Below, piece by piece: positions 1,835 through 16,785 of a stretch of DNA of 16,785 nucleotides. Positions within the stretch are counted from its first letter, which is position 1; each line of letters opens with the position of its first letter. The DNA is from Verrucomicrobiales bacterium. GTDB lineage: Bacteria > Verrucomicrobiota > Verrucomicrobiia > Limisphaerales > UBA1096. The stretch is taken from assembly GCA_002721375.1 (NCBI GenBank), contig PBKH01000060.1:79702-96486 (forward strand), given 5' to 3'. A program made the position numbers and the translations under genes. The notes beneath the pieces were generated by a model. That model ran no database searches and was not told the origin of the DNA. It saw only the letters and a list, made by a program, of their open reading frames with translations.

Positions 1835-1853
1835 GGCAGATTCAGTTGGACTA

Positions 1854-3149
1854 ATGAATATTTCGTTAAAGAAACGACTCAAGCCTTTTGGCCTGTTGAT
1901 TACAGCTTTGGTTATCACTTGGTCAAGTTTGGCAATTGCGTCGGACCTCGTCGTGCCGGGAGCCAAGCCGGCTAAGCTTGCTGATGGGTTCAAGTTCACA
2001 GAGGGACCGGCCGTGGCAGCCAACGGCGATGTCTATTTCACCGATATCCCGAACAACCGTATACACAAGTGGTCGGTCAGCAAAAAAAAACTCTCTACTT
2101 TTGCTGAGGAATCCAACGGGGCAAACGGTCTGTACTTCGCCGATGATGGCAGCCTACTTGCCTGTCAGGGTAACGCCAAGCGTGTGGTGGCCTATACGCA
2201 GGACGGTAGTGACACAAACTCCCTGGCCAAACGCTATGACGGTAAGAAATTCAACAAGCCGAACGATCTTTGGATCGATATCAAGGGTGGCGTGTATTTT
2301 TCAGATCCGAACTACGGTAACAAGGAACTGTCACAGGACGGCATGCACGTCTATTACATCCAGCCAGGTGGCGGCGATGTTGTTCGTGTAGCTGATGGTT
2401 TCAAGACACCAAATGGGCTAGTGGGCACGCCGGATGGTAAAACGCTATACATCGCTGACATAGGTGATGACAAAATTTACCAGTATAGCATTCAGGAGAA
2501 TGGAACACTCAAGGACAAAAAACAGTTCTGCAAAAGCGGGTCAGATGGTATGACGCTCGACCAACATGGCAATGTTTACCTTACCTCCGGCACGGTCAAG
2601 GTTTTCAGTCCGGAAGGGAGGCAGATTGCCGATCTCAAATTCCCCGAGCGCCCTGCTAATGTGGTGTTTGGTGGTAAAAATTTGAAGACGTTATATGTCA
2701 CGGCGCGTACCGGTTTCTACTCGCTCGATATGGCAGTGACCGGGGCCAAACGCGAAAAGCCTTTCCGAATCACCATCGGCACTGTTCAGGACAAGATGAT
2801 CTATGACAAAAAGGAGTTCAGCGTTGAAGCTGGCAAATCGGTGCAGGTGACATTTGTGAACAACGACTTCGCGCCGCACAATCTCCTATTCGTCAAACCT
2901 GGTACGGCCGATGAAGTGGCCAATCTGGCCATCGCATTGGGTAATGACGGGTTCAAGAAACAGTGGCGCCCGGATACACCGAAAATCCTTTGGGGTTCGA
3001 CAATGATTGATTATGAGCAGAAAACGGTCATCAGTTTCACCGCGCCGGAACCGGGCGATTATCCATACGTTTGCACTTTCCCTGGCCACGCATTGATGAT
3101 GCGTGGGACGATGCATGTTCTGCCCAAAGGCGGCGGAGAAAAGCCTTAG
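1854..3149 (+). CDS. Secreted SMP-30/gluconolactonase-like propeller fused to a C-terminal cupredoxin
   Basis: A 431-residue protein starting at ATG 1854, 19 bases after the previous stop and probably cotranscribed with it. Residues 1-29 form a Sec signal peptide (KKRLK, hydrophobic core, cleavage near AIAS). Residues about 33-298 are an SMP-30/gluconolactonase propeller. By alignment to the family, the metal ligands would be E50 (FTEGP), N187 (TPNG) and D231 (SDG), with N137 (KPND) as the substrate-side Asn. Residues about 304-426 are an azurin/plastocyanin-like type 1 copper domain: H342 (APHN), C407 and H412 in the C-T-F-P-G-H motif, and M416 as axial Met with azurin-like spacing. All expected ligands are present. 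Family knowledge suggests lactone hydrolysis or sugar-acid chemistry for the propeller and electron transfer for the copper domain. The physiological substrate is not visible. The cupredoxin could accept electrons from the upstream propeller protein, which lacks a visible haem motif. Confidence 0.9.
   Translation: MNISLKKRLKPFGLLITALVITWSSLAIASDLVVPGAKPAKLADGFKFTEGPAVAANGDVYFTDIPNNRIHKWSVSKKKLSTFAEESNGANGLYFADDGSLLACQGNAKRVVAYTQDGSDTNSLAKRYDGKKFNKPNDLWIDIKGGVYFSDPNYGNKELSQDGMHVYYIQPGGGDVVRVADGFKTPNGLVGTPDGKTLYIADIGDDKIYQYSIQENGTLKDKKQFCKSGSDGMTLDQHGNVYLTSGTVKVFSPEGRQIADLKFPERPANVVFGGKNLKTLYVTARTGFYSLDMAVTGAKREKPFRITIGTVQDKMIYDKKEFSVEAGKSVQVTFVNNDFAPHNLLFVKPGTADEVANLAIALGNDGFKKQWRPDTPKILWGSTMIDYEQKTVISFTAPEPGDYPYVCTFPGHALMMRGTMHVLPKGGGEKP
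2763..3131 (+). other. Type 1 copper (cupredoxin) domain of the SMP-30 fusion protein
   Basis: This segment encodes residues about 304-426. The ligand set H342, C407, H412, M416 follows the azurin order, with Cys to His five residues apart and His to Met four apart. M415 is next to the expected axial Met and could substitute. Confidence 0.85.
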
Positions 3150-3173
3150 TGCGAGGCTAAGGGATGCCTCACT
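3148..3173. terminator. Candidate bidirectional hairpin between convergent genes
   Basis: An imperfect inverted repeat: the left arm AGTG-CG-AGGC (3148-3157) pairs with the right arm GCCTCACT (3166-3173) around an 8-base loop. The stem is about 8 pairs with a 2-base bulge. It spans the 19-base gap between two convergent genes and touches both stop codons. There is no strong T-run on either side, so intrinsic termination is only plausible. Confidence 0.35.
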
Positions 3174-3501
3174 CCACTACGACGGCAGTGCCGTAGGCCA
3201 TCATTTCTGCTGCTCCTCCCATGATAACGGAGGTTTGAAATTGCAGTCCGATAATAGCATTAGCATCGAGCTCCCCTGCTTGGTCGACCATGCGGTCGAG
3301 TGCCTGCTCGCGGCTTTCGGCCAGTAGCTTGGCGTATTCGGTTACCTCGCCACCCACGAGATTTCTTAGGCCTGCCATAATATCCCTCCCAACGTGCCGG
3401 GCGCGGATGGTGTTCCCACGTACGAGACCGAGTGTACGCACTATTTTTTTACCTGGAATTTCCGGGGTAGTTACAACGATGATTTTGTTATTTTCATTCA
3501 T
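3169..3501 (-). CDS. YbjQ/UPF0145 family protein
   Basis: A 110-residue protein matching the YbjQ (UPF0145, DUF74) family in length and motifs: T-P-E-I-PGK at the start, a GNTIRARHVGRD segment, VGGE followed by Y, an R-x-x-A-x-x-RM helix, ANAIIG, and a final AYGTAVVV strand. Members form small ring oligomers and are sometimes labelled heavy-metal-binding; the biochemical role is not settled. No signal peptide or membrane segment is seen, so it should be cytoplasmic. It is the third gene of the sigma/anti-sigma operon, starting only 5 bases after the anti-sigma stop. No clear Shine-Dalgarno precedes its ATG (3501-3499), so expression probably depends on translational coupling. Confidence 0.88.
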   Translation of the reverse strand: MNENNKIIVVTTPEIPGKKIVRTLGLVRGNTIRARHVGRDIMAGLRNLVGGEVTEYAKLLAESREQALDRMVDQAGELDANAIIGLQFQTSVIMGGAAEMMAYGTAVVVE

Positions 3502-3506
3502 GGTAT

Positions 3507-3989
3507 TTAAATCTGGACGTCTCTGTATTTGTCAGTCTTGGCCACTTTTAGGCGCTGAAACAGGACGGTAAAAAATAGGATGCCGATTCCACCGATCAAC
3601 ATCGGTAATCCGAACCGTACGAATAGGGGAATCTTGTCTTCTATCTCGCCGGTCTCGGCAAAGTTGGAGTCGGTGATTATCTCCCAGCATAGCCAGCAGG
3701 CCCCGACGCCGTAAATGAGGATTAACCCAGCGAGGACGAACACTAGGCCAAAGCTTGCCCCTATTCCGGTTGTTGCTTTTTTTGTCATGTTGCTCTTTTC
3801 AATTTTGGTTAGTTGATCGAAAGAAAGAGAGCTCACGCTTTCGCGTAGTTTTTTTAGCTCTTGGTAGGAAGACGCACACTGACTGCAATCTTCTAAAATC
3901 AAGTCAACGCGCTGCCGGTTGGCTTGGGTTAATTCCCCATCGAGGTAGGCATTCAGCAGCAACTCGGCTTCCTGACAATCGTGTTTCAT
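3507..3989 (-). CDS. Membrane anti-sigma factor with zf-HC2-like N-terminus
   Basis: A 160-residue protein overlapping the sigma gene by ATGA (start ATG 3989-3987), the usual layout of an ECF sigma factor with its anti-sigma. Residues 1-45 resemble the zinc-finger anti-sigma domain (zf-HC2): an early Cys (C5), an AYLDGELT motif and C35-x2-C38. The His expected four residues before the first Cys of that pair is Ile31, so the usual HxxxCxxC is incomplete; H3 or C5 may complete a metal site, or there is none. Two hydrophobic helices follow, about residues 75-99 and 122-144, so it sits in the inner membrane with the finger-like domain probably cytoplasmic. The role, holding the partner sigma factor inactive until an envelope signal, is inferred from context and domain. 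Confidence 0.8.
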   Translation of the reverse strand: MKHDCQEAELLLNAYLDGELTQANRQRVDLILEDCSQCASSYQELKKLRESVSSLSFDQLTKIEKSNMTKKATTGIGASFGLVFVLAGLILIYGVGACWLCWEIITDSNFAETGEIEDKIPLFVRFGLPMLIGGIGILFFTVLFQRLKVAKTDKYRDVQI

Positions 3990-4489
3990 TTAAGATATTT
4001 TTCCATCCTAAGTCGTAGTTCTTTGCGAGCGCGGTGCAGCCGGCTCATAACAGTTCCCGGTGCGATGCTGAGCACTTCGGCTATCTCCGCATAGCATAAG
4101 TCGTGAAAATCCCGCAGCAGAATGATTTCAAGCTGGGACTCTGGCATCAAATCGAGCTGCTGTCGGAGGATTCCCATTAGTTCCGAACATTCGACAGAAA
4201 TGTCCGGGGATTTAGATTTAGTGGGCAATCTCGTAACGGCTTCGTGATCGTTCGGTTTACGCTTGCGAATTACATCCAGTGCACCGTTGCGCACAACCTT
4301 GAGGAACCAAGTGTGCAGCGAGCCCTTGTGGTGCTTGTAGTAGCCACCATGGATCAGTTTGTTCAAGGTATCCTGAACCACGTCGGCGGCATCCTCATGA
4401 TGACCAAGCAACTGTATCGCTAGTGCGAAGCCAGAATCGGTCAACAACTCCAGATTGTCAGCGGACGGAATTGACCTCTCAGTGGTCAT
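3986..4489 (-). CDS. ECF-type RNA polymerase sigma factor
   Basis: A 167-residue sigma-70 family protein with only regions 2 and 4, as in ECF sigma factors. Region 2 covers about residues 14-80, with HHEDAADVVQDTL for core binding and W-F-L-K-V-V-R-N before DVIRKRK in the -10-binding helix. Region 4 covers about 106-160, with a helix-turn-helix reading YAEIAEVL then GTVMSRLHRARKEL, the standard -35-recognition signature. I chose ATG 4489, which has AGAG just upstream; an in-frame TTG at 4501 would add four residues. The stop overlaps the anti-sigma start (ATGA), implying translational coupling. A candidate ECF promoter lies upstream at 4558-4582, suggesting autoregulation. I cannot assign it to a specific ECF group by eye. 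Confidence 0.9.
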   Translation of the reverse strand: MTTERSIPSADNLELLTDSGFALAIQLLGHHEDAADVVQDTLNKLIHGGYYKHHKGSLHTWFLKVVRNGALDVIRKRKPNDHEAVTRLPTKSKSPDISVECSELMGILRQQLDLMPESQLEIILLRDFHDLCYAEIAEVLSIAPGTVMSRLHRARKELRLRMEKYLK

Positions 4490-4557
4490 CAACTCTGCCA
4501 AGGGTAATTGTAGCCGGTCGGTTGCGTTAGCCAGACAGTTGACCAGGCCAACAGTAC

Positions 4558-6036: not shown

Positions 6037-6060
6037 TGCTAATGCGATTAGGCGTATTTA
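6037..6060. terminator. Weak hairpin between convergent genes
   Basis: CTAAT (6039-6043) and ATTAG (6047-6051) form a 5-pair stem with a GCG loop, followed by an AT-rich stretch. It lies in the 28-base gap between two convergent genes. The stem is short and AT-rich, so this is only a possible terminator. Confidence 0.2.
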
Positions 6061-6744
6061 ATTAGATCCGTAGGTCCGCCTGATGAAGGGTTTTTCAACA
6101 AAAAGATAGAAGCTATAAATTCCTATATGACAGCCGACGGCATACCAGAGACCGAAAGCTGACCCGGTGACGATTGCTGCAGAGTAGGCGTGGAAGTTCC
6201 CTATGCCATACATCGGGTTAGGTAGGAACTTATAGGGTCCAGTAGCGGTGAATTCTCCATGGGAACGATCGAGAAACAGATCGCGGAAGTAGTAGGTGTT
6301 TATGCCGACAATCCAAGTGGCCCAAAATTTGATACCGAAGCCAACCACCGTTAGCAAAGCAAAAAGGCTCCATTTCAATCCAGAAGACAATTCAAAGGAG
6401 CCCGCTTCGTGAAGGGCGGCAAGGCCAATGCCGGAGCCAAGGTTGAAAAACATCAGTCCGCAAATCATGTCGTATAGTGCGAGTGCTTTTTTTTCACCAA
6501 GCTTGCGAATCATAAAATGATTGATACGAGTTCCGAGGATCAGGCTAATGCCGCCGTAATAGAATAACCATGACGCAGCCACAAATGAAATGTGGTGTTC
6601 GTTTTGGTTCACAAAATAGGCCAGCCACGAAGAAAGTCCGATCAGTGGAATCCATGCGATCAACATACGGCCGGCATCCAGTCGCAACCCGCCCATGGCG
6701 ACAAAGACATCGATTGCTTTCAATAAAGCCTTAAGAAAATTCAT
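6058..6744 (-). CDS. PEMT/ICMT-like integral-membrane methyltransferase family protein
   Basis: A 228-residue hydrophobic protein with about five to six membrane helices (near 28-44, 53-70, 90-111, 125-149 and 185-215). The C-terminal part carries the pattern of phospholipid (PEMT/CHO2) and isoprenylcysteine methyltransferases: T-G-P-Y-K-F-L-P-N-P-M-Y-G at 168-180 and E-K-P-F-I-R-R-T-Y-G at 217-226, corresponding to the family's [H/N]PxY and EexxLxxxYG boxes that bind S-adenosylmethionine. A lipid or other membrane-embedded substrate is therefore likely, but its identity is not visible. It lies 92 bases after the acyltransferase gene on the same strand and could be the last gene of the cluster. 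Its link to the ankyrin proteins is positional only; it has no ankyrin segment. Confidence 0.65.
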   Translation of the reverse strand: MNFLKALLKAIDVFVAMGGLRLDAGRMLIAWIPLIGLSSWLAYFVNQNEHHISFVAASWLFYYGGISLILGTRINHFMIRKLGEKKALALYDMICGLMFFNLGSGIGLAALHEAGSFELSSGLKWSLFALLTVVGFGIKFWATWIVGINTYYFRDLFLDRSHGEFTATGPYKFLPNPMYGIGNFHAYSAAIVTGSAFGLWYAVGCHIGIYSFYLFVEKPFIRRTYGSN

Positions 6745-6836: not shown

Positions 6837-8552
6837 TCATGACGATCTTTTGTCAAATTTGCGACCATTAAGCATTGTTCCGATGCAAGTGTAGCGCACG
6901 ACGTGCTCGTAGACTAATAGCAGTGCTGCTGTGCAGATCGTACAGATGCCAATAAACTTCACACCACTTGGCCAGTGCCAGTCCTTCACCCATATCTGCA
7001 ACATCATGATTAACGGCAGATGAGTGATGTATAACCAGTAAGATGCATCGGAGATATAGCGGATAAGCTTGTTCTCTCCTGAAAAAAACCGGCGAAACAA
7101 TCCGATCAAGCCGAAGATCATCAGCCAAGCGTAAAGAACGCTGAACAGTGCGCAGAGAAAGTTGGTTAGTAGAAGATGTGCCAGATCATTTGATTCACCA
7201 GTAACGAAGAGCCCACCTCGCAGCTCATACCAGTGCAGCCCCATCAGCAGTGTGGGCAAGGCAAGTAGCAGGCATACGGGCCATTGACGTCCAATGTTAT
7301 TCTCCAGGATCCTCCGGCCGTAACACAGTGCACCAAAACCGAAAAAGACCGCATAATAGGCGAGCAGAGGAGGCCAAGGGATGGGGCTCGCAGCGGTATC
7401 CGGCCCATAATCGGTTACCATTAAAAATTGCGGTAAAAATGTCAGCGGCACTAGCCACAGTAGTCGCAACGGCGAGGTGATGAACCATGCTGGAATCGGC
7501 TTCCAATTACGCTTGCGTGCGATCCAGGCAATCATGGTGAAGCCTGCCACTAGCAGCATTAAGTAATACAGAAACCAGAGATGCTGAAAGATAGGCACGA
7601 ATGACAACAGCCAATTAACGACCATCACCAGAGCAATAGTTTGTGCCCAACTGGGTAACTGGTCGATGATCGTCTTAAGGCCCGGGGTCATCACGTAAAG
7701 CCATCCGAGGGCCTCTTCCTTCACTTTATCTTGGGGCAGGGCACCTTTTGCCTTGAGCAACTTGGCAATCTCGATGCGGCCGGCAGACAGTTTCTCCATG
7801 TCAACAGGCAACTGCAGCATTCCGGCTAGGAACTGTGTGGCGTCTTCGTCTGTTTCCGTTACTGAAAGTGGTGTTTCACCGTTTTTGCTTTTGCTGTGGA
7901 TGTCAGCTCCGTTCTCGATCAATACCCGGGCTATTTTAGTTTTACCCATGAACGCGGCATTATGTAGCGCTGTATAGCCGTCGTTATCTGCGACTTGAAC
8001 ATCCGCACCGCCTTCAATCAAGATGTTGGCGGCATCCACTTGGCCAAGCAGTGCGGCCCACATCAGGGCGGTTAACCCGACTGAGTCAGGTTGGTCAGGG
8101 CCAGCTCCGTTTGCCAAGTGCCTTTCGACGGCCTTGGTATTTCCCGACTGGACAGCTGTCCAGAGCGTGTCAGATCGGGTCTTGTCAGTATTTACGCCAT
8201 AAAACCAGATTCCGATCAAGATTGGGGCAAGGATGAGAGTGAAGACCACCAGCGGCAGCAGAATGCTCTTGGTCCGGTGCTTGACTAATCCGCGAAGGCC
8301 TCGCTTACGATAAAGCATCATGGTGAAAAAACCGCTGACTAAAAAGAAAAGCTGCAATCTAAAGCCATGAATGGCATGCAGGGCGAACAGATAGCCGTCG
8401 TGCTGATGGATGTCTTGTGCGGGCCAAACCGGCAAAGGAAGGGCAACGAATGACATCAATCCGTGCAGTGCGATGCCCAGTAGCATCGCTACAGAGCGCA
8501 AAGCATCTAAATCGTGATAACGTATGTTAACCGGTGAAACTGCCGCTGGCAT
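6837..8552 (-). CDS. Membrane acyltransferase (Acyltransferase_3/OpgC-like) with an inserted ankyrin domain
   Basis: A 571-residue protein. The N-terminal part is acyltransferase family 3: D-L-D-A-L-R-S (14-20), an in-helix His at 30, L-F-F-L-V-S-G-F-F (68-76) and a basic loop (82-95). The family resumes at about residue 300 with H-L-W-F-L-Y-Y-L (324-331) and several more helices to the end, including S-Y-W-L-Y-I-T-H-L-P. Between helix 3 (about 96-119) and the next membrane segment lies a soluble block, residues about 128-271, of ankyrin repeats with a special cap. Without it the protein would be about 420 residues, close to the family's normal size. The strongly basic loop after helix 2 marks the cytoplasmic side, so the block after helix 3 should be periplasmic. 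Family members move acyl groups onto glucans, peptidoglycan or other sugars; the acceptor is unknown. The gene lies 88 bases after the CotH-ankyrin gene. Confidence 0.85.
   Translation of the reverse strand: MPAAVSPVNIRYHDLDALRSVAMLLGIALHGLMSFVALPLPVWPAQDIHQHDGYLFALHAIHGFRLQLFFLVSGFFTMMLYRKRGLRGLVKHRTKSILLPLVVFTLILAPILIGIWFYGVNTDKTRSDTLWTAVQSGNTKAVERHLANGAGPDQPDSVGLTALMWAALLGQVDAANILIEGGADVQVADNDGYTALHNAAFMGKTKIARVLIENGADIHSKSKNGETPLSVTETDEDATQFLAGMLQLPVDMEKLSAGRIEIAKLLKAKGALPQDKVKEEALGWLYVMTPGLKTIIDQLPSWAQTIALVMVVNWLLSFVPIFQHLWFLYYLMLLVAGFTMIAWIARKRNWKPIPAWFITSPLRLLWLVPLTFLPQFLMVTDYGPDTAASPIPWPPLLAYYAVFFGFGALCYGRRILENNIGRQWPVCLLLALPTLLMGLHWYELRGGLFVTGESNDLAHLLLTNFLCALFSVLYAWLMIFGLIGLFRRFFSGENKLIRYISDASYWLYITHLPLIMMLQIWVKDWHWPSGVKFIGICTICTAALLLVYEHVVRYTCIGTMLNGRKFDKRSS
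7740..8171 (-). other. Ankyrin cassette inserted in the acyltransferase
   Basis: Residues about 128-271. The three repeats have the cores LWTAVQSGN, TALMWAALLGQ and TALHNAAFMGK, followed by GETPLS and a cap containing DMEKLSAGRIEIAKLLKAKG. Order, spacing and cap match the blocks in the two neighbouring lipoproteins. The cap has GR without the Pro seen in the other three copies, and lacks the EW residues. Confidence 0.85.
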
Positions 8553-8594
8553 TTCTGGGCGGACTTTCTCTCTGCGGCGCCTAAGTAAAGGGGA

Positions 8595-8634
8595 TAATTA
8601 TTATTATTATGCCATGACAGGTGGCCATGACAGG
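8595..8634. repeat. ATT-rich microrepeat and tandem 11-base direct repeat upstream of the acyltransferase gene
   Basis: GCCATGACAGG occurs exactly at 8611-8621 and 8624-8634, a 13-base period. It sits beside a run of ATT/TTA triplets (8595-8610). On the minus strand the AT run could supply a TAATAAT-like -10 element for the acyltransferase gene, but no good -35 is present. The paired repeat could be a regulator site. Confidence 0.5.
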
Positions 8635-8640
8635 CACTAC

Positions 8641-11538
8641 TTAGCGAAATTCTTCACCTCTTAGTCCGCCGTTTTCCTTTAATAAATCGGCGATCTTGGG
8701 GCGTCCTGTCCTGGCACGATCGAGGTCGACCTCCATTTTCAAAATACCCCCAACAATCTGCATAAGGCCTTGTATTTCTTTCCACTCATGGGATGCGTTA
8801 TCTAGTGGCGTTTCTCCTTTTTCGTTGGTCAGATTTAAGTTTGCCTTGTTCTTTATAAGCATCTCAACAATTTCTGTCTGGCCAAAAAAAGCTGCTGCAT
8901 GCAGTGGTGTTGCACCATCTCTATTTTTTCCATTTATTTTGGCTCCCTTCTTGATGATCAATTTTGCAGCATCTTTTTGGCCTGCCATAGCAGCCCAAGA
9001 TAATGGAGTAATTCCCATTTCATCGTGTCCGTTCACGTCTGCGCTCTTGGACAGAGCCTCCTGTAATTTCGCCAAGTCGCCATTTTTTGCGGCGCCCCAA
9101 ATCCCACCAAGGCTTCCAGCCAAGTCGCGCCCGGATTTGCCTCCGTTTTCCTTTAACAGTGCGACGACCTTTGGCCGACCTTCACGCACTTTGTTGATAT
9201 CAGTCTTGATTTGGACGATGGCAGAAATGAACTCCACTATTCCTTTAAGCTCCTCACTCCACTCGGCGGCACCTGAGTCGAGCGGTGTTTCACCCTTGTG
9301 GTTCCGTGCGTTTACCTTAGCTCCGGCTTCGATAAGTAGTTTTGCAGCTGCCGTTTGGCCAAGGAAGGCGGCCCCATGAAGCGGGGCGCTCCCATCATTT
9401 CCAGAAAGGTTCACGTCCGCTCCCTTTTCAATTAGAAACCCCACCGTTTTTGTATGTCCGGCAAGGGTTGCTAGACTAAGCGCTGTCCCGCCACCTTCAT
9501 CCTTGGCATTGACATCCATTTCTTTGGCCAAGTGTTCCTTGAGTATAGACATGTTTCCAGTTCTGGCTGCGTTCCAAAATGAGATTTTCTTTTCATTCCC
9601 TTCGTCGCGCTTACTTTTTGGTTTTTCCTTTTTGTCCTTATCGTTGTCTCGATTTCGACGTCCCCATCCTCTTTCGCCCCCGAGAATCGGCGGTGGCTCT
9701 GGGGCGGCGCTCCAGAGCGGCATGTCGTCTCCAGAGATTTCGAGTTCCACGTCAGCGCGGCGATTGCGGATGAAGCGGCGGATTTTTTCGTGGTCCACTT
9801 TCCGTTTTTGTTCCCATGAAAGATGTGGTTCGACCATGGCCTCAACCCGTTTGGTCTCTGCGAGCAATTTTTCCTCGTCCCAGTGCTCGGCCATGAGCGC
9901 TTTCATTTTCTCGGCGTATTTCTTCCTTACACCGGGGATTTGGTAAAGTTTGTGCGCGACGAGGCCTACCGTACGGACTGATCGGGGCGAACTGCGGTCT
10001 ACCCCAAGAGGGCTGTATTTTTCAAACATACAGTCGGCTCCCCAAGGCATAAAATGAAACTTGTCTGTCTCCGGATTAAGGTAGACAAAAAAATTGTTGC
10101 GGTTGCCCGAGTAACCATCCCAGAAACTAAGCAGACCCTCGATGGTCCAGAAGGAGTAAAATGCTTCTTCGTCGATTAGTTTCCAGATTTCTTGCTCAAT
10201 GTCAGAATCATTCGTTTGTAACTCGGCGACAGCGAGTAGATCAGTGCTGCGATCGCTAATGTTCATCACATGTAGTGCGAGTACATTTCGGCCAGAGCGC
10301 AGCTTATCGCGGTTGTCGGAAAGGTCATATGACGTAAACTGCATTGAGGCTTGGTCATTACCACTGCCGGTGGCAACGGAGTCCCAGCGGGGATCTTCTG
10401 GTGCATTGTGCCTGGCTATCTCATACCCGTTCAGATAAGCGACAAATCCATCGTCACACTTCATCCGAAGTAACACCTTGTGGGCGGAGTTGATGGTGTC
10501 GATTGAGTCGAGCTCGAACGGGAATCGCAGATAGAGCGACGTCGCTTTGCCGTACATTGCTTCGTCAAAATCGAAGCCGTCTTTGATAAGTGATTCATAG
10601 CCTTCCTCCCGCTCGTAGCCTGCTCCGTTTTGCCCGACGCTCCAGGCGGAATCATCAAAACCGGGTTTAAACCATTGGTCATCAAATTTGCCGCTGGTAG
10701 GTACCCAACCGCGTCCCGCGGCCTTACCCCCAAAAAATGAATCGCCCTCCACCCCCTTTAAAGCGTTGATGACATTGACGATGTGCTCACGCCCCGGCTT
10801 GTCCTTTCCAAATTTCTTCTCAAAACTGTTTTCCCATTCCTCATGAAAGTCGACCACTGTCCCTTCATAAAGAGTGCCTTTGTCGCTCCCAAAACTTCGT
10901 TTAATTAAATGTTTTCTAACACTTTCTACGTGGGCATAAACCCCAAGATTCTTTCCATTTACGGTAATTTTTGCCAAGGCACACCGTGATGCTGGCGAAC
11001 CTGCTGCATTAAATAATTCGTAGCCCATAAACTGGCTCATCAGGCTGGTATCCTGTTGGTTGTTATTGAACGTAAGCATGCTCAAACCATCAATCTCGTT
11101 TTTCTTGTCTATATGGTTCAGCTTGATTTTGAGAGAGGGACGTGAACTGCTTTGCGACCCAATGAATCCTTTCTTGCGAATACCCACGCGTGGGAAATTA
11201 ACGCCGTCAATAGTTACACTGGCCTCGACATAGGTATATGGAGATTCGACTTCTCCGAATTGACGTTTGGGTTGCAGCGCCTCAAAGAAATTGCGCGATT
11301 GATAACGTAAAGTATCCCAATCTTCGTCTTTAACTTTGATATCAACTTCAACCAACCGATCCCTTGGGAAAAGGTCTTCAAGCTTTAAAGAATGCTGACT
11401 ATTACCATGCGTTGAGGTTCCGGTTTTTGTTGAAGAGATAGAAGCGCTATCAGCTTCTACTTCTGAAGTGGGAGCTTCGGAGCCAGCGCATCCAAAGAGG
11501 AGCGCTGTTGCAACGGGTATAATGAATAGATGTTTCAT
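8641..11538 (-). CDS. CotH-kinase family lipoprotein with nested beta-sandwich domain and two ankyrin blocks
   Basis: A 965-residue protein. Residues 1-17 are a lipoprotein signal (lipobox L-F-G-C, lipidated C17), followed by a Ser/Thr-rich linker. A CotH kinase-like domain begins at about 62 (VEVDIKVKDEDW) with the nucleotide-loop-like GIRKKGFIGS (119-128) and K137 in SLKIK. It continues after an insertion with D-G-Y-S-G-N-R-N-N-F (474-483) and the metal-site motif P-W-G-A-D-C-M-F (498-505), ending near 600. The insertion, about 277-442, is a beta-sandwich of the type common in PVC secreted proteins (FDDSAW, CDDGFVAYLNG, NVLALHV). A highly charged linker (621-650) leads to two ankyrin blocks, 651-800 and 811-960. 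CotH proteins phosphorylate other proteins; here the kinase would act outside the cytoplasm. It is second of three adjacent ankyrin-bearing genes and has a candidate ECF promoter just upstream. No clear Shine-Dalgarno. Confidence 0.9.
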   Translation of the reverse strand: MKHLFIIPVATALLFGCAGSEAPTSEVEADSASISSTKTGTSTHGNSQHSLKLEDLFPRDRLVEVDIKVKDEDWDTLRYQSRNFFEALQPKRQFGEVESPYTYVEASVTIDGVNFPRVGIRKKGFIGSQSSSRPSLKIKLNHIDKKNEIDGLSMLTFNNNQQDTSLMSQFMGYELFNAAGSPASRCALAKITVNGKNLGVYAHVESVRKHLIKRSFGSDKGTLYEGTVVDFHEEWENSFEKKFGKDKPGREHIVNVINALKGVEGDSFFGGKAAGRGWVPTSGKFDDQWFKPGFDDSAWSVGQNGAGYEREEGYESLIKDGFDFDEAMYGKATSLYLRFPFELDSIDTINSAHKVLLRMKCDDGFVAYLNGYEIARHNAPEDPRWDSVATGSGNDQASMQFTSYDLSDNRDKLRSGRNVLALHVMNISDRSTDLLAVAELQTNDSDIEQEIWKLIDEEAFYSFWTIEGLLSFWDGYSGNRNNFFVYLNPETDKFHFMPWGADCMFEKYSPLGVDRSSPRSVRTVGLVAHKLYQIPGVRKKYAEKMKALMAEHWDEEKLLAETKRVEAMVEPHLSWEQKRKVDHEKIRRFIRNRRADVELEISGDDMPLWSAAPEPPPILGGERGWGRRNRDNDKDKKEKPKSKRDEGNEKKISFWNAARTGNMSILKEHLAKEMDVNAKDEGGGTALSLATLAGHTKTVGFLIEKGADVNLSGNDGSAPLHGAAFLGQTAAAKLLIEAGAKVNARNHKGETPLDSGAAEWSEELKGIVEFISAIVQIKTDINKVREGRPKVVALLKENGGKSGRDLAGSLGGIWGAAKNGDLAKLQEALSKSADVNGHDEMGITPLSWAAMAGQKDAAKLIIKKGAKINGKNRDGATPLHAAAFFGQTEIVEMLIKNKANLNLTNEKGETPLDNASHEWKEIQGLMQIVGGILKMEVDLDRARTGRPKIADLLKENGGLRGEEFR
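8659..9108 (-). other. Ankyrin cassette B of the CotH lipoprotein
   Basis: Residues about 811-960. Repeat cores are IWGAAKNGD, TPLSWAAMAGQ and TPLHAAAFFGQ, then GETPLD, an EW-containing helix and the cap R-T-G-R-P-K-I-A-D-L-L-K-E-N-G-G. It is a full-length tandem duplicate of cassette A with the same order and spacing. The DNA of the two copies has diverged, so the duplication is not recent. Confidence 0.88.
9139..9588 (-). other. Ankyrin cassette A of the CotH lipoprotein
   Basis: Residues about 651-800. Repeat cores are FWNAARTGN, TALSLATLAGH and APLHGAAFLGQ, then GETPLD, an EW-containing helix and the cap R-E-G-R-P-K-V-V-A-L-L-K-E-N-G-G. A ten-residue linker (801-810) joins it to cassette B. 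Confidence 0.88.
10213..10710 (-). other. Beta-sandwich domain nested inside the CotH kinase domain
   Basis: Residues about 277-442. It has the pattern of a galactose-binding-like module frequent in secreted PVC proteins: GWVPTSGKFDDQW, FDDSAWSVGQNGAGY, SLYLRFPFEL, DDGFVAYLNGYEIARHN and GRNVLALHVMN. It separates the nucleotide-binding half of the kinase fold from the half with the NRNNF and PWGAD motifs. Confidence 0.7.
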
Positions 11539-11552
11539 AAATCTTGTATTAG

Positions 11553-11577
11553 TACGTTCAGACGTGGATTTTATTCC
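11553..11577 (-). promoter_or_regulatory. Candidate ECF-type promoter of the CotH-ankyrin gene
   Basis: On the minus strand GGAATAAA (11577-11570) is followed after exactly 13 bases by CGTA (11556-11553). The match to the site before the ECF sigma gene includes both elements, the spacing and several spacer bases (18 of 25 positions by my count). A start 6-8 bases after CGTA would leave a leader of only about ten bases before ATG 11538, which fits the lack of a Shine-Dalgarno sequence. Confidence 0.5.
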
Positions 11578-11664
11578 TCAATAACGTTGCCAAAATAGTA
11601 GGGGCAATGCTTATCGGGATAACGTCCAACTTTGTTGATTGTTTATTTATTTTAACTATCCAAT

Positions 11665-12192
11665 TCAACGCAGAATGTCAGCGATCTCAGGGCGGGTTGA
11701 CTTAATTCGATCATAATCCAAGGGAATACCAATGGGCTTGAATAAAACACCGTTGAGGAAATCGTATATGCCTTTTGCCTCCTCCCATGGCATTGCAACG
11801 CCATCCAGAGGTTTGCTACCGGCATTGTTTCTTGCGTTCTTATCAGCTCCTTTATCGAGCAAAGATTGGACTATTTCCGTATAACATAAAAAAGAGGATA
11901 TATGAAGCGGCGTGTCTCCATTTTTATTTCGTGAATTAATGTCTGCTCCAGCTTCAATCAAAGCTTTGGCAACATCAGTGTGGCCAAACGCCGCCGCCAT
12001 TCCCAGTGCGTCGTCTTTATTTCCAGTGGGGTTTGGATCTTTTTGGTTCAGGTCAGTTCCAGCGGCAATATGTTTTTTTATTGCATCAAGGTTACCTTTT
12101 GACGCTGCTTCAAACAGATCAACATTAGGGGGTGCAGGTGAACATGCTGCAAATAGAACTGCAACTCCGATTGGTATAATATATTGTTTCAT
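11665..12192 (-). CDS. Small ankyrin-repeat lipoprotein
   Basis: A 175-residue protein. Residues 1-17 form a lipoprotein signal (lipobox F-A-A-C, lipidated C17) resembling that of the downstream CotH protein. The mature protein is essentially one ankyrin cassette: cores LFEAASKGN (27-35), ALGMAAAFGH (62-71) and TPLHISSFLC (94-103), then SKPLD, a W-E-E-A-K-G-I helix and the cap T-R-P-E-I-A-D-I-L-R, where it ends. Compared with the other cassettes it has a few extra residues before the second repeat and lacks the final ENGG. The ATG (12192-12190) overlaps the DUF1501 stop as ATGA, so translation is coupled. With no catalytic domain, a binding or scaffold role is likely (inference). A 126-base gap separates it from the CotH gene. 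Confidence 0.88.
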   Translation of the reverse strand: MKQYIIPIGVAVLFAACSPAPPNVDLFEAASKGNLDAIKKHIAAGTDLNQKDPNPTGNKDDALGMAAAFGHTDVAKALIEAGADINSRNKNGDTPLHISSFLCYTEIVQSLLDKGADKNARNNAGSKPLDGVAMPWEEAKGIYDFLNGVLFKPIGIPLDYDRIKSTRPEIADILR

Positions 12193-13469
12193 GAAAAAAG
12201 TTGGTTGATGGGCTGCCCATCACGAATAAGGTTAATGGGTCGGCCGACGTTGGTCTGGAATTCGTGCTGTGGATCAATACCGATATTCTGAAAAAAGGAC
12301 GCAGCGAGGTCTTCTGGTGAGTAGCTTTTTCCAACGGGTTCGCTGGCGCGGTCGTCTGTTGCACCGATCACCTGTCCTCCCTGCACATCTCCCCCGGCCA
12401 TCAGTGCGAACATCGCTCGAGCCCAATGGTCGCGTCCGCCTTGGGCGTTGACCTTGGGCGTACGCCCGAATTCACCGGCGACCATCAGTGCGGTTTCATT
12501 AAACAAGCCGCGATCCTTAAGCCGATCGATCAAGGCGGCTAGACCCTTGTCGAATGGGGGAAGCAGGGCGCGCAGCCGAGAGAAGTTATCCTGATGCGTG
12601 TCGAAGTCGAACTCCGCCGGTCGTAAGCGTACTGTGACGAAATGAACGCCAGCCTCAATAAGGCGGGCTGCAAGCAACAGGCTTTGTCCAAACTCGTGTC
12701 TACCAAACCGGCTGGCATCTGCCTCTTTTTCCTGTGTCAGATCGAACGCTTTGCGAGTGGTCGCCGAGCTGATGATGTCGTGCGCTTGTTCTCCAAAGCG
12801 GTCTAGTCCGCGAACTGATTCATCTAGATTCTCGAAACCTCGAAACGCCGTGTCGAGGTCGTCGAGAAGTTTCTTTTGAGAATTATATTTTTCGACTGTT
12901 AATCCATCTTCAAGGGAAATTCCCCGAACAGTATATGGTATGCCATAAGTCGGTTTGTTGGCAGTAAGAGCACTAAATTCATTCCCAAGATATCCAGGAC
13001 CCACAAACGATTCATCAATCGACACATAGGAAGGAAGGTCAAACGCAGATGGGTGTACTTTGCTTACAACGGCTCCGTATTCAGGGTAACTTAAGGTTTG
13101 GGAAGGCCGATTACCTGTAAGGAGATATTTTTTGCCGATGCCATGGTCGGCCAAGGTGTGCGAGAGGCCACGAATGATGGCGTAGTCCTTCATGCGCTTG
13201 GCCAATTCAGGAAGGTGCTCACATATTTGAATGCCGGGCACAGAAGTTGATATTGGTTTAAAGTCACCTCGATATTCAGAAGGCGCATCCGGCTTCAAAT
13301 CAAAGGTGTCCTGATGGGATGGACCCCCCTCAAGAAAAACAAATATTCCGGACCTTTTAGGCGAACTCGATTTTGTGGCGGCTTGGAGTTTTAAATAATG
13401 TGACAATGAAAGCCCCCCCAAGGCTCCCACCTTGAGCATTTCTCGCCGGTTAAAATGCTTTTTGTCCAT
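12189..13469 (-). CDS. DUF1501 family protein, Tat-exported
   Basis: A 426-residue protein of the DUF1501 family, related to the alkaline phosphatase/sulfatase fold and abundant in PVC bacteria. The N-terminus has a twin-arginine signal (N-R-R-E-M-L-K at 7-13, then a Gly/Leu-rich stretch). Family motifs are F-L-E-G-G-P-S-H-Q-D-T-F-D (45-57), CEHLP (83-87), G-E-F-G-R-T-P-K-V-N (332-341) and G-R-D-H-W (345-349); the Asp and His residues in them suit a metal site. Length is normal and the domain looks intact. Its enzymatic activity has not been established for the family. It starts 12 bases after the quinoprotein-like gene and overlaps the ankyrin lipoprotein gene by 4 bases, so it is in the middle of an operon. 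The leader is AT-rich without a Shine-Dalgarno sequence. Confidence 0.93.
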   Translation of the reverse strand: MDKKHFNRREMLKVGALGGLSLSHYLKLQAATKSSSPKRSGIFVFLEGGPSHQDTFDLKPDAPSEYRGDFKPISTSVPGIQICEHLPELAKRMKDYAIIRGLSHTLADHGIGKKYLLTGNRPSQTLSYPEYGAVVSKVHPSAFDLPSYVSIDESFVGPGYLGNEFSALTANKPTYGIPYTVRGISLEDGLTVEKYNSQKKLLDDLDTAFRGFENLDESVRGLDRFGEQAHDIISSATTRKAFDLTQEKEADASRFGRHEFGQSLLLAARLIEAGVHFVTVRLRPAEFDFDTHQDNFSRLRALLPPFDKGLAALIDRLKDRGLFNETALMVAGEFGRTPKVNAQGGRDHWARAMFALMAGGDVQGGQVIGATDDRASEPVGKSYSPEDLAASFFQNIGIDPQHEFQTNVGRPINLIRDGQPINQLFS

Positions 13470-13481
13470 TTGTTTGCTTAA

Positions 13482-15074
13482 TTATTTTTTCCGTCCAACT
13501 TTCCGCTCCGCAACGTCAAGGGTAACCTTTTGATATTGTTTGTAACCAGAAAAAGAATCCCGGAAATTGTCACCGGTAAACTTGACCTTTGGCCATTCAT
13601 CTTTCGGGAGATTTTCGTCTTCAATGAGAAAACTGCCTTCAAAGACACCATTGCTGTTCGTTTTCGCTCCCAGATAGTAGGCGGTTACTACAACGATGCT
13701 GTTTGAATTACGCTTTATTGCTTTTTTTATGGTTCCGCTCGCCGGTTTTGAGCGCTTAGCTGATAAAGCGATTTTTGGAAGAGCTTCCACTTCGTATCCC
13801 TTCGCAAGGCGATAGAGATGCGTGTCCGACCGGATGATCATGGTATCTCCGACGATGGCTGGCATGGAGACGAATACGGTGTCCGATTCGGTCTTCGAGA
13901 GAAGTTTGAACTCAGAAGAAGCCTCAATAACTGAAAAAACGCCGTCGCGACTGAACAAGTATATTTTACCGCCAGCCTGCACGGGAGAGATCCAGTGATT
14001 TTGAAGGCCGCCCAGTCTTTCGCTGTAAAGTTGCTTACCGGTTTTTGCGTTGTAGCAGCTGACCATTCCGCCGCTATCGCTAATCAGGAATAACTTGTCA
14101 TCAACGACGAGAGGCGCAGGGATGTTGGAAACGCCCCTGCGCGTTTTCCAACGGATGTGCGAATCGGTGACGTCGCCAGAACCGGATGGATCTATGGCGA
14201 AGAGATTTTTTGAGATGCCGGAGTTGGTGAAAACCAGTCCATGCCTGAAAATGGGTTTGCACGTGACATTATAGCCAAAGCCGGATCCATGACGAATAAA
14301 CCATAACTCTTCGCCAGTCGCCGGATCGTAGGAATAAGTCGCTTCCGCCGCCGGGCTGATCAGTTGTTTTTTGCCGTTATGCTCGATGATGGTCGGGGTG
14401 GCATACGATTTTCGGTTGTCGTTCGGCTTGTCCTTCGGAGGCGCATAACCAGATTTGTAGGTCCGTTTTGTGATCCAGCGGGTCTTGCCAGTTTTCTTCT
14501 CCAGCGCAGCAACGAATTGCTTGTCCACTCCGTCGTACGTGAGAAACAGCAGGTCACCATCGATGATGGGGCAGGAGGCAGCGCGAACCCGATGGTCGCA
14601 ATTCAAGTCACGGCGCTCCCAAATTTTTTTGCCGGTCTTCGTGTCCAAACAGGCTGTACCGTAGGAGCCGAAGTGCACGTAGATTCGTCCCTCCTCAATG
14701 ATCGGTGTGGGGGTTGCGTGCGTGTTTAGATGATTGTATTCAGTCTGAGGCTTGGCCACGTCGAAAACCTTGATGTCGTGTACCTTTTTCCCGGTCTCAA
14801 GGTCGACGCAAACGGCGAACACTTCGGAGCCGTCCACTTTTGCGGTCGTGACCCAAACCTGATCCTTCCAGACAACGGGCGACGACCATCCCAAATCATG
14901 AATGGGGGTTCTCCATTGCACGTTCTTTGTGCCGGAAAACTCAATGGGGAGGTTGGCATCCTTAGCGTTTGCGTCATTAGGCCCCCTGAATTGATTCCAG
15001 AATGAGTTCGCACTCAAATCTGATGGCAATACGATGGTCAGGAAAAGTGCGAGAAAGATTATATTCTTTTTCAT
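13482..15074 (-). CDS. Secreted PQQ-type (BamB-like) beta-propeller protein with extra C-terminal domain
   Basis: A 530-residue protein with a Sec signal peptide (residues 1-22, cleavage near LSA-NS). The mature start carries the F-W-N-Q-F-R-G-P motif typical of PVC PQQ-like propellers. At least five blades show the D-x-x-T-G-K-x-x-W signature (for example VDLETGKKV, LDTKTGKKIW, LEKKTGKTRW, YDPATGEELW, YNAKTGKQLY). The propeller ends near residue 430. The last 100 residues form a separate segment of alternating strands (V-V-V-T-A-Y-Y-L-G near 459-470, F-L-I-E-D-E-N, V-T-L-D-V-A-E-R near the end) that I do not recognise; it could be a small beta-barrel. Whether the propeller binds PQQ cannot be told from the repeats. 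It lies 16 bases after the DUF1549 gene and 12 before DUF1501. Confidence 0.88.
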   Translation of the reverse strand: MKKNIIFLALFLTIVLPSDLSANSFWNQFRGPNDANAKDANLPIEFSGTKNVQWRTPIHDLGWSSPVVWKDQVWVTTAKVDGSEVFAVCVDLETGKKVHDIKVFDVAKPQTEYNHLNTHATPTPIIEEGRIYVHFGSYGTACLDTKTGKKIWERRDLNCDHRVRAASCPIIDGDLLFLTYDGVDKQFVAALEKKTGKTRWITKRTYKSGYAPPKDKPNDNRKSYATPTIIEHNGKKQLISPAAEATYSYDPATGEELWFIRHGSGFGYNVTCKPIFRHGLVFTNSGISKNLFAIDPSGSGDVTDSHIRWKTRRGVSNIPAPLVVDDKLFLISDSGGMVSCYNAKTGKQLYSERLGGLQNHWISPVQAGGKIYLFSRDGVFSVIEASSEFKLLSKTESDTVFVSMPAIVGDTMIIRSDTHLYRLAKGYEVEALPKIALSAKRSKPASGTIKKAIKRNSNSIVVVTAYYLGAKTNSNGVFEGSFLIEDENLPKDEWPKVKFTGDNFRDSFSGYKQYQKVTLDVAERKVGRKK

Positions 15075-15090
15075 TTATAAAAATGTAATT

Positions 15091-16785
15091 CTAATGGTTC
15101 AGTATAAATTCTTTTGTGTTCATTAAGGCCCAAAGAAGATCGGTCATGCCTTCCTCGGTGGATGAAACATTAGCCAGATGTTTTTTGGCTCGGAAAACTT
15201 CTTCCTGCCTAGGTAGGCGGTTTACGGAGCGAAGCCATGCCTCATTAATTAGCTTAGAAATATCTTTTGACTCGCTCTCGCTAACCTCAGAAATCCAGCC
15301 GCTGTTTTCTAAGCGCATGCGGACAAGCGGGTCGTTTTGTAGAAAAATCGATTGTAGTAACGTAGGTTGGTTAACACGTTCACAATCACAGTTAATGGCT
15401 CGATCAGGCTTTCCAAAAACTTTCATCGCATGCGTTCCTGCCATGCGCATAGAAAGATGCCCTGTCCCACGTCGTTTTAAATCTGTTCTGATTTTTTCCA
15501 GCTGATCCGTTTTTGCCGTGGCCTGTTTCATGGCGTCATAGATTACCTCTGCTGGAATTCTACGAGGGATGGCCCGGCTATAGTTGCGAAGGTCTTCTCG
15601 GTTGGTTTCGTTTGGGCGCCAGCTGCGTTGGTATGTCTCGCTGCTCACAATTTGTCGATGCAGCCATTTCATATCGTAGCCGCTTTTAACAAAGCCTTGG
15701 GCTAACCAGTCAAGCAGGGCTGGATTGCTGGGAGGATTGGAGGGAGTAAATTCATCCGTCGGCTCAACAATGCCGACATTAAAATAACCGGCCCATACGC
15801 GATTCACAAAAGAGCGGGTGAACCATGGGTTGTCCTCTCTGCTCAGCCAATCCATGATGGGATCGCGGGGATCATTATCTCTGATCGTGACCTTATGGCT
15901 ACGAAGCAAGCTCAGGTTTTTTTCATTATTGGATGATAGGTTGGAGGATCGTCTTTTACGCCCAGTTTTGAGCTTTGGGGAATCGAAGAAACTAGCAAAA
16001 TCGACAAAGTCATTTTGTGTCCATTGGTCAAAGGGATGTTTATGGCATTCTGCACATTGCAATTGAATTCCAAGGAAACTATGGGCAACGGACATAGCAG
16101 TATCCTTTGGTTCTTCCAGACTTTGCCGCGTCCAAAAGTAAGGCATCCCGCCTCCAACGCCACTTGATAGATCCGCCAGCATAATACCCTGAACTAATTC
16201 AATGTAGGATCGATTGCTGGCAATCTTTTCATAAATCCAGTCGTACCATCTTGCTGCTTTTACATATCCGTCTTCTGTAGCTACTTCCAGTAAGCTACTT
16301 ATGGAAGTTGGGTTACAACCTGTGAAATCGCAGAGCTTGTTTGCCCACCATGCTGCGTAGGATGGGCGTTCCAAAAGCTCATTTATCTTAAGCTTACGTT
16401 TGTCAGCAGATGAATCGGAGGAAAATGATATTACTTCATCCGGAGAAGGAAGTGTGCCGGTTAAATCAATGCTTACCCTTCTGAGAAACTCAGTATCCGA
16501 ACATCGATCCGAGGGAGTGATTCCAAGTTTGTTCAGTTTTTTCCCAACCAATTTGTCAATGGTGTTGGAATATTTTGTGATATCTAACTTAGTTTGGTTG
16601 TCAACAAGAGGCCTTAAAACCGGGATGGCAGCAATCCCGTTGTCATATAATGCAACTATGTGGGTGTCGCCTTTTCCGGTTGAAGTTGCCAAACCTGATT
16701 TGTTCACCCCGACCACGGCATCATTGTTGGTAAGGAATCGTGTTAAGGATGTTACGTCCTCTCGCTCTCCGTCTTTCCATTCAGC
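15091..16785 (-). CDS. DUF1549/DUF1553 protein with N-terminal Ig-like domain (5' partial)
   Basis: The reading frame runs off the right edge; about 564 residues are visible and the true start lies outside. The first visible residues (D-G-E-R-E-D-V-T, then N-N-D-A-V-V-G-V, then a G-D-T-H-I-V-A-L-Y strand) match the end of a bacterial Ig-like (Big_2) domain. DUF1549 follows, with FLRRVSIDLTGTLPSPDEV and a C-A-E-C-H-K-H-P-F-D-Q-W motif at about 16021-16056; CxxCH here is a conserved family feature. DUF1553 then runs to the C-terminus with F-V-N-R-V-W-A-G-Y-F, PTDEF, S-S-E-T-Y-Q-R-S and N-Q-P-T-L-L-Q-S. These proteins are exported in PVC bacteria and typically sit beside DUF1501 genes, as here; activity is not established. 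GTG at 16716-16714 should not be taken as the start, because the Ig-like domain continues upstream in frame. Confidence 0.9.
   Translation of the reverse strand, partial: AEWKDGEREDVTSLTRFLTNNDAVVGVNKSGLATSTGKGDTHIVALYDNGIAAIPVLRPLVDNQTKLDITKYSNTIDKLVGKKLNKLGITPSDRCSDTEFLRRVSIDLTGTLPSPDEVISFSSDSSADKRKLKINELLERPSYAAWWANKLCDFTGCNPTSISSLLEVATEDGYVKAARWYDWIYEKIASNRSYIELVQGIMLADLSSGVGGGMPYFWTRQSLEEPKDTAMSVAHSFLGIQLQCAECHKHPFDQWTQNDFVDFASFFDSPKLKTGRKRRSSNLSSNNEKNLSLLRSHKVTIRDNDPRDPIMDWLSREDNPWFTRSFVNRVWAGYFNVGIVEPTDEFTPSNPPSNPALLDWLAQGFVKSGYDMKWLHRQIVSSETYQRSWRPNETNREDLRNYSRAIPRRIPAEVIYDAMKQATAKTDQLEKIRTDLKRRGTGHLSMRMAGTHAMKVFGKPDRAINCDCERVNQPTLLQSIFLQNDPLVRMRLENSGWISEVSESESKDISKLINEAWLRSVNRLPRQEEVFRAKKHLANVSSTEEGMTDLLWALMNTKEFILNH

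What the first reader, a model, noticed from the sequence alone, without database searches (positions are those of the whole stretch)
7740..12123. One ankyrin cassette shared by three adjacent, otherwise unrelated envelope proteins
Four homologous blocks of about 145-150 residues occur within 4.4 kb: one in a small lipoprotein, two in tandem in a CotH-kinase lipoprotein and one inside a membrane acyltransferase. All have the same repeat order and the same atypical cap. All are predicted to face the periplasm or outside. Adjacent genes with the same accessory module on a scaffold, a kinase and an acyltransferase suggest a physical complex or a shared ligand, possibly an undescribed envelope-modification system. 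The alternative is simple local domain duplication without shared function.
Basis: partly seen in the sequence, partly recalled or inferred. Interest (0 to 1): 0.75.

Follow-up and report, generated by a model that had tools for sequence, protein, structure and literature searches.

The report
Shared capped ankyrin module, three proteins
Three neighbouring cell-envelope genes of a Verrucomicrobiota bacterium carry the same unusual capped ankyrin domain; the arrangement is old and conserved in its genus, which points to a common binding partner that is still unknown.

Summary
Four ankyrin cassettes (152-157 residues) sit in a lipoprotein, a CotH-type protein (two in tandem) and an AT3 acyltransferase. 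Their C-terminal cap is specific: 64-89 bits against 13 for the next own-genome ankyrin ORF held, and four cap matches in the genome. Recent local duplication does not fit this locus: cassettes group by position, not by genome. The gene order recurs in the same-genus contigs that reach far enough. Capped cassettes recur in other Verrucomicrobiota and in Planctomycetota in a few host types and lie close together more often than chance. The acyltransferase cassette lies in the loop between TM helices 3 and 4, which gates the acyl-CoA channel in a published OafB model (PMC9833829, passages). Best reading: an exchangeable recognition module that directs membrane and secreted proteins to a common partner. 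The partner, a complex and kinase activity are not shown: one of two Asp essential in Bacillus CotH is Gly here, and only 4 of 68 non-genus cassette acyltransferase loci show another capped gene in the held flank. No description was found in the papers searched.

The parts
15091..16785 (-). DUF1549/DUF1553 (PSCyt2-PSD1) protein, first visible gene of the conserved unit (open at the window end)
   Evidence: Pfam; synteny
13482..15074 (-). PQQ-type beta-propeller protein
   Evidence: Pfam; synteny
12189..13469 (-). DUF1501 protein; its stop overlaps the start of the lipoprotein gene by 4 bases (ATGA)
   Evidence: Pfam; sequence; next to the lipoprotein gene in 7 of 7 genus contigs that reach (the window and six)
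11665..12192 (-). small ankyrin lipoprotein (175 aa), lipobox-like LFAAC ending at residue 17
11668..12126 (-). capped cassette of the lipoprotein (residues 23-175)
8641..11538 (-). CotH-type lipoprotein (965 aa), lipobox-like LLFGC ending at residue 17
9724..11373 (-). [not shown]
10201..10749 (-). insert in the CotH domain, mostly beta in the model (about residues 264-446), missing in P0181 and P0186
9118..9588 (-). capped cassette C1 of the CotH protein (residues 651-807)
8644..9111 (-). capped cassette C2 of the CotH protein (residues 810-965)
6837..8552 (-). AT3 (Acyl_transf_3) membrane acyltransferase with inserted cassette, 571 aa
7719..8174 (-). capped cassette in the TM3-TM4 loop of the acyltransferase (residues 127-278); only a short loop there in five relatives at 49-53% identity
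6058..6744 (-). PEMT-family methyltransferase, last gene of the conserved unit
   Evidence: Pfam; 13 of 13 genus contigs that reach

Best explanation
The locus is a conserved envelope gene unit in which three otherwise unrelated, probably extracytoplasmic proteins carry the same capped ankyrin recognition module. In the AT3 protein the module sits in the loop between TM helices 3 and 4, which gates the acyl-CoA channel in a published AT3 model; it is proposed to hold the acceptor or a partner over the channel mouth, so that an acyl group from cytoplasmic acyl-CoA is passed to it. The CotH-type protein, anchored outside and carrying two modules on a probably flexible linker, acts on the same partner or acceptor, and the small lipoprotein is a free adaptor with the same module. 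Shown: anatomy, cap specificity, old position-wise descent, exchange of cassettes between hosts elsewhere, conserved order in the genus, recurrent linkage and co-occurrence outside it. Inferred: the periplasmic side, acyl transfer, activity of the CotH domain, and that the modules share a ligand.
For: Cap specificity. In one search each own cassette scores best with same-position cassettes of other species, and C1 is one clade (96/94). Genus synteny: a cassette-bearing gene that is CotH, or the cassette end of one cut by the contig, lies directly before the acyltransferase, or with one GYF_2 gene between (G007, G009, G015), in 12 of 12 contigs that reach; lipoprotein next to DUF1501 in 7 of 7; PEMT after the acyltransferase in 13 of 13. 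Outside the genus, in 112 genomes of the order sample, AT and LP cassettes co-occur (5 both, 2 AT only, 1 LP only, 104 neither; Fisher p 9e-7), and 11 pairs of capped genes within 5 kb in 8 of 30 genomes with two or more stand against 0.204 expected (tallied by hand). Lipoprotein gene directly before the acyltransferase gene in G478, G496 and G535 and one gene away in G519. CotH with two cassettes next to an AT-cassette gene in Fuerstiella. One clade for all acyltransferase cassettes is rejected (p-AU 1.75e-5), while the four backbones with lipoprotein-type cassettes form one clade among AT backbones: cassettes have moved between hosts. Most small capped proteins whose N-terminus could be read start with a signal sequence and a lipobox-like Cys (by eye; not L194/L236 of G050). 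AT3 motifs R-X10-H (R19, H30) and FFLVSGF are present (motifs from passages).
Against: Only 4 of 68 non-genus acyltransferase loci (L113, L129, L138, L153) have another capped gene in the held flank; 41 of the 68 have at least 3 kb on both sides. Seven of 21 same-genus genomes have no such acyltransferase hit, one of them (G011) 90% complete. AT3 relatives at about half identity have no cassette. The CotH residue aligned with the essential D251 of B. subtilis is G500 in all 26 aligned proteins. The second Arg of the AT3 RXXR motif is Ser96 in the window protein though Arg in 90% or more of the aligned relatives. No ligand, complex or activity was tested. Near-invariant cassette residues may be structural.
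Confidence: 0.45

Rival explanations
1. Homotypic docking: the cassettes bind each other, so that lipoprotein, CotH protein and acyltransferase form one envelope complex.
For: Same cassette subtype, conserved neighbourhood and co-occurrence; the CotH cassettes hang on a low-confidence, probably flexible stretch (pLDDT under 50 at 620-650).
Against: No complex prediction was available; most acyltransferase-cassette loci show no capped neighbour and many genomes have one cap match only.
Confidence: 0.2
2. Local domain duplication without shared function.
For: In one acyltransferase subclade (L112, L117, L129, L161) the acyltransferase cassette is of the lipoprotein type, and in L129 the two genes are adjacent. 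The lipoprotein-acyltransferase pair of the window is no more alike over the whole domain than the lipoprotein and its best control.
Against: At this locus the cassettes descend by position through the genus; the same host types with the same cap recur in other phyla, also unlinked; linkage recurs outside the genus.
Confidence: 0.15
3. The cassette is a general stability or regulatory domain of envelope proteins in these phyla, recruited by each host with its own ligand; linkage reflects shared regulation only.
For: Hosts are diverse: AT3, CotH, YNCE propeller, PQQ, redoxin. Sigma, FecR or planctomycete-cytochrome (DUF1549/1553, DUF1587-1595) genes lie near several capped genes.
Against: Cassette movement between hosts and the tight lipoprotein-acyltransferase pairing in some lineages suggest functional equivalence.
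Confidence: 0.2

Closest known systems
AT3-SGNH acyltransferases (OafA, OafB, OatA)
   Same: AT3 membrane domain with R-X10-H and FF-x-x-SG motifs plus an extra extracytoplasmic domain
   Different: The extra domain is a capped ankyrin cassette in the TM3-TM4 loop, not an SGNH domain after TM11; no SGNH family among the Pfam matches
OpgC/MdoC glucan succinyltransferases (NF003014)
   Same: Best NCBIfam match of the AT3 part, 102 bits
   Different: Far under the curated cut-off of 338 bits; stand-alone AT3 there, cassette here
CotH kinases (Bacillus CotH, 5JD9/5JDA)
   Different: Predicted lipoprotein with an insert and two cassettes; WDxD is WGAD, so the D251 position is Gly
PatA/PatB peptidoglycan acetylation pair
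   Same: Membrane acyltransferase with a separately encoded extracytoplasmic partner (PMC9558356, passage)
   Different: PatA is MBOAT and PatB SGNH; here the suggested partner is an ankyrin lipoprotein, with no activity shown

Membership tests
AT3 acyltransferases (PF01757) | Pfam match over cut-off | tested here: met
   104.8 bits against 31
AT3 acyltransferases (PF01757) | R-X10-H in TM1 (called absolutely conserved in PMC9833829) | tested here: met
   R19 and H30; H30 invariant and R19 90% or more in 26 sequences; motif from a passage
AT3 acyltransferases (PF01757) | RXXR at the cytoplasmic face of TM3 (called highly conserved, not defining; essential in OafB) | tested here: not met
   window has R93 and S96 with K95 between; 90% or more of the 26 aligned have Arg at 96. 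Bears on activity more than on descent
AT3 acyltransferases (PF01757) | acyl transfer activity | not testable with these tools
   no assay
OpgC/MdoC (NF003014) | curated cut-off 338 bits | tested here: not met
   102.4 bits
AT3-SGNH | C-terminal SGNH domain | tested here: not met
   no SGNH match among Pfam hits; the chain ends soon after the AT3 domain
CotH kinases (PF08757) | Pfam match over cut-off | tested here: met
   102 bits against 23.8
CotH kinases (PF08757) | CotH fold | tested here: met
   [not shown]
CotH kinases (PF08757) | the two Asp whose change inactivates B. subtilis CotH (D228, D251) | tested here: inconclusive
   D474 fits D228 by motif (HMMER's line without gaps puts S477 there); G500 aligns with D251 while D502, two residues on, is invariant (D228 and D251 from passages of PMC7821199; their places in 5JD9 inferred from spacing)
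Ankyrin repeat domain | Pfam ankyrin matches and fold | tested here: met
Dot/Icm ankyrin effectors (NCBIfam NF0430xx) | curated cut-offs | tested here: not met
   at best 96.5 bits against 600; repeat similarity only
Anti-phage defence systems (PADLOC) | match outside the ankyrin repeats | tested here: not met
   for six proteins scanned, matches only to ankyrin-containing models; best stretches lie in or around the ankyrin part

The most novel reading that the evidence does not exclude
The capped cassette is an acceptor-sensing lid built into the gating loop of an AT3 acyltransferase: binding of the acceptor, or of the co-encoded cassette lipoprotein, moves the TM3-TM4 loop and opens the acyl-CoA channel, and the CotH protein modifies the same acceptor. 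This would be a ligand-gated transmembrane acylation system, and a non-SGNH answer to how AT3-only proteins reach their acceptor.
Probability: 0.15. Interest if true: 0.85.

Novelty: new variant of a known kind. Interest (0 to 1): 0.6.

Why it matters
A 2022 review asks how AT3-only proteins act without an SGNH domain and whether a partner is needed (PMC9558356, passage). Here is a widespread AT3 subfamily with a domain placed in the loop thought to gate the channel, relatives without it as natural controls, and in several lineages a free copy of the domain encoded next door. It also gives a handle (the cap profile) to find envelope proteins of Verrucomicrobiota and Planctomycetota that may serve one process.

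Tried and rejected
Recent local duplication: not supported for this locus by the position-wise tree, kept for one acyltransferase subclade elsewhere. 'Any ankyrin': rejected on the cap, though the repeats alone do not separate the lipoprotein-acyltransferase pair from its best control. Defence system: only ankyrin-level PADLOC matches. OpgC membership: under cut-off. A phylum search with the whole CotH protein was uninformative, because at most about two candidates per genome were scored in the rows shown (1 of 387 genomes, the own one). No AT3 structure was found in the PDB by sequence; Foldseek and VIA lists for the acyltransferase model were filled by designed and natural ankyrins, so the AT3 part was not tested. 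Promoter and terminator counts equalled the shuffles. The tools offer no complex prediction. Paper searches with nothing on point in the listings seen: (one search matched 170 papers on two of three terms, of which 20 were listed).

Corrections made in checking: one search counted an acyltransferase without a cap match in G050 and G544 but not elsewhere; one search counts the acyltransferase of each fetched locus throughout and replaces its linkage figure (11 pairs in 8 genomes, 0.204 expected, instead of 10 in 7, 0.175). This did not change my odds.

Biases: one search returned the best 80 of 426 loci against a query that contains the cassette, so '80 of 80 with a cassette' (79 of 80 reaching the cap, L155 the exception) says nothing on how many AT3 proteins lack it; of the 120 homologues listed, 6 have no ankyrin Pfam domain (two of them may be fragments). 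L100-L111 are same-genus contigs already met and were not counted again. The genomes were chosen because they hold the acyltransferase; G540 equals G452 and G536 equals G513 and were counted once. G544 and G564 are both named Fuerstiella (L138, L158); without G564, 7 of 29 genomes have a linked pair. The cap alignment A3 includes rows from some of the genomes then searched (among them G025, G054, G055, G057 and probably G478). In the Fisher test an acyltransferase outside the set was seen only through its cap, and G050's 147-residue capped frame was not counted as lipoprotein. Fisher and linkage figures ignore phylogeny and contig breaks. Host classes of many capped proteins rest on reading-frame length alone. 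In one search the tree tool dropped five control rows and six more were under half filled; four own-genome rows without a cap were left out as cassettes, being present as controls. In one search rows over 60% identical and 18 rows of unassigned host class were dropped.
Full report
WHAT IS THERE. On the minus strand the window holds, in order of transcription, DUF1549/1553 (15091-16785), a PQQ propeller (13482-15074), DUF1501 (12189-13469), an ankyrin lipoprotein (11665-12192), a CotH protein with two ankyrin blocks (8641-11538), an AT3 acyltransferase with one ankyrin block inside (6837-8552) and a PEMT-family methyltransferase (6058-6744). DUF1501 and the lipoprotein gene overlap by ATGA; the gaps after the lipoprotein, CotH and acyltransferase genes are 126, 88 and 92 bases. 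The lipoprotein and the CotH protein start with a signal sequence and a lipobox-like Cys (LFAAC, LLFGC; motif recalled, read by eye).

THE CAP. Each block has an N-cap, two full repeats and a final repeat with extra residues, partly helical, before the last helix. Against many solved ankyrins 131 of the 153 residues 127-279 of the acyltransferase align. A profile of the cap gives 64-89 bits to the four window cassettes and 13 bits to the next own-genome ankyrin ORF among the loci held. The genome search found four caps, while the genome has 82 Ank_2 matches. On whole-domain score the relation is weaker: the lipoprotein-acyltransferase pair scores 188, below the lipoprotein's best control at 203.

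AGE. In one search each own cassette scores best with cassettes of the same position in other species (for example C1 with C1 of G009, 691, against 355 with C2 of its own protein). The tree puts C1 in one clade (96/94). LP, C2 and AT rows cluster by host with weaker or unresolved support, and one badly filled control falls inside AT; the six groups need 8 changes against 42.7 when labels are shuffled. So the duplications are older than the genus.

CONSERVED ORDER IN THE GENUS. Fourteen of 21 same-genus genomes, the own one included, have the cassette acyltransferase. In the contigs that reach far enough a cassette-bearing CotH gene lies directly before it, or with one gene between, in 12 of 12. 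In four of these it is cut by the contig (G003 and G007 keep the end of CotH, G004 and G013 only cassettes). The gene between, in G007, G009 and G015, is a GYF_2 protein. The lipoprotein lies next to DUF1501 in 7 of 7 and PEMT follows the acyltransferase in 13 of 13. Of the seven genomes without the acyltransferase hit six are 61-80% complete, and G011 is 90% complete. Named records of the same contigs are Verrucomicrobiota MAGs, apparently marine, some called Pedosphaera or Pedosphaeraceae (taxonomy).

BEYOND THE GENUS. In a sample of 116 genomes of the order, 15 have caps. The hosts recognised fall into few types: AT3; small lipoproteins; CotH; a protein of about 1,100 residues with a YNCE propeller (in one case a MauG match under its cut-off) and a C-terminal cassette; and, in genomes named as Planctomycetota, PQQ and redoxin proteins. 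The lipoprotein gene lies directly before the acyltransferase gene on the same strand in G478, G496 and G535 (gaps 14, 1 and 78 bases for the frames as called), and one gene away in G519. In G025 the lipoprotein is next to a FecR gene and then the 1,113-residue protein. In Fuerstiella (L138) a CotH protein with two cassettes is the convergent neighbour of an AT-cassette gene. Outside the genus AT and LP cassettes co-occur in the order sample (5/2/1/104 genomes, p 9e-7), and 11 pairs of capped genes within 5 kb in 8 of 30 genomes with two or more stand against 0.204 expected. These inputs were tallied by hand and ignore phylogeny. Against this, only 4 of 68 non-genus acyltransferase loci show another capped gene in the held flank (L113, L129, L138, L153), with at least 3 kb held on both sides in 41 of the 68. 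Linkage is recurrent, not general.

EXCHANGE. In a wider cassette tree (73 rows) cassettes of four acyltransferases (L112, L117, L129, L161) sit with lipoprotein cassettes (99/94 fork), one (L123) near the 1,100-residue type with weak support, and one clade for all acyltransferase cassettes is rejected (p-AU 1.75e-5). The backbones of the four form one clade (100/98) among AT backbones that carry AT-type cassettes. Cassettes therefore moved between hosts, in one direction or the other. Of the four, L129 has the lipoprotein gene next door; L117 and L161 show none in the held flank and L112 is too short to tell. This is local exchange in one lineage, and also a sign that cassettes of different hosts are interchangeable.

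THE ACYLTRANSFERASE. The AT3 part has R-X10-H (R19, H30) and FFLVSGF; the second Arg of RXXR is Ser96 here but Arg in most aligned relatives (motifs from passages of PMC9833829 and PMC9558356). Five AT3 relatives at 49-53% identity have only a short loop where the cassette sits. That loop, between TM3 and TM4, is periplasmic by topology prediction and, in the published OafB model, a re-entrant loop inside the membrane domain that controls a channel (PMC9833829, passages). The model of the window protein has mean pLDDT 85.2. The side of the membrane is inferred from the basic stretch between TM2 and TM3 and from OafB; no topology program was run. In the same genome, tandem AT3 genes carry a different, uncapped ankyrin domain after an extra C-terminal hydrophobic helix (helix seen by eye), like the AT3-SGNH layout.

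SHARED RESIDUES. Across host classes a Phe in the second full repeat, at a position varied for binding in designed ankyrins (recalled), and an Asp and an Arg of the cap are among the most conserved positions.

READING. The most economical account is a recognition module shared by proteins that work on one envelope component. A complex held by the cassettes, and independent use as a stability domain, remain possible. The partner is unknown. Searches of the held paper library (listings) and of two AT3 papers for 'ankyrin' (0 occurrences) found no description of it; most subscription papers and preprints are not in that library.

Noticed in passing
L071 (G000:C17) and L072 (G000:C42); L079 (G019:C60): Tandem AT3 genes of about 610-621 residues with an extra C-terminal hydrophobic helix and an uncapped C-terminal ankyrin domain: a second way of joining ankyrin to AT3.
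   Followed up: partly
window 3169-4501; L083:5106-6915: A sigma factor, a zf-HC2 protein and YbjQ lie near the unit. In G009 the same three genes follow PEMT directly and YbjQ carries N-terminal ankyrin repeats, which the window's YbjQ (110 aa) lacks.
   Followed up: partly
L099, L214, L222, L220, L225: The roughly 1,100-residue propeller proteins with C-terminal cassette are neighbours of FecR genes (G025, G496, G467) or of DUF1587-1595 planctomycete cytochrome genes (G564, G574).
   Followed up: partly
L083:9552-10505, L085:10067-10999, L093:1215-2168: A GYF_2-domain protein gene stands between CotH and the acyltransferase in three genus members, not in the window.
   Followed up: partly
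L113:2215-5274, L119:94-3159: A cassette acyltransferase is followed directly by an AT3 gene without cassette.
   Followed up: no
window 10201-10749: The CotH domain has an insert of about 180 residues that is missing in two aligned homologues, P0181 and P0186.
   Followed up: no
window 2-3149: DUF7133 and SGL/cupredoxin genes on the plus strand also recur beside the unit in the genus.
   Followed up: no
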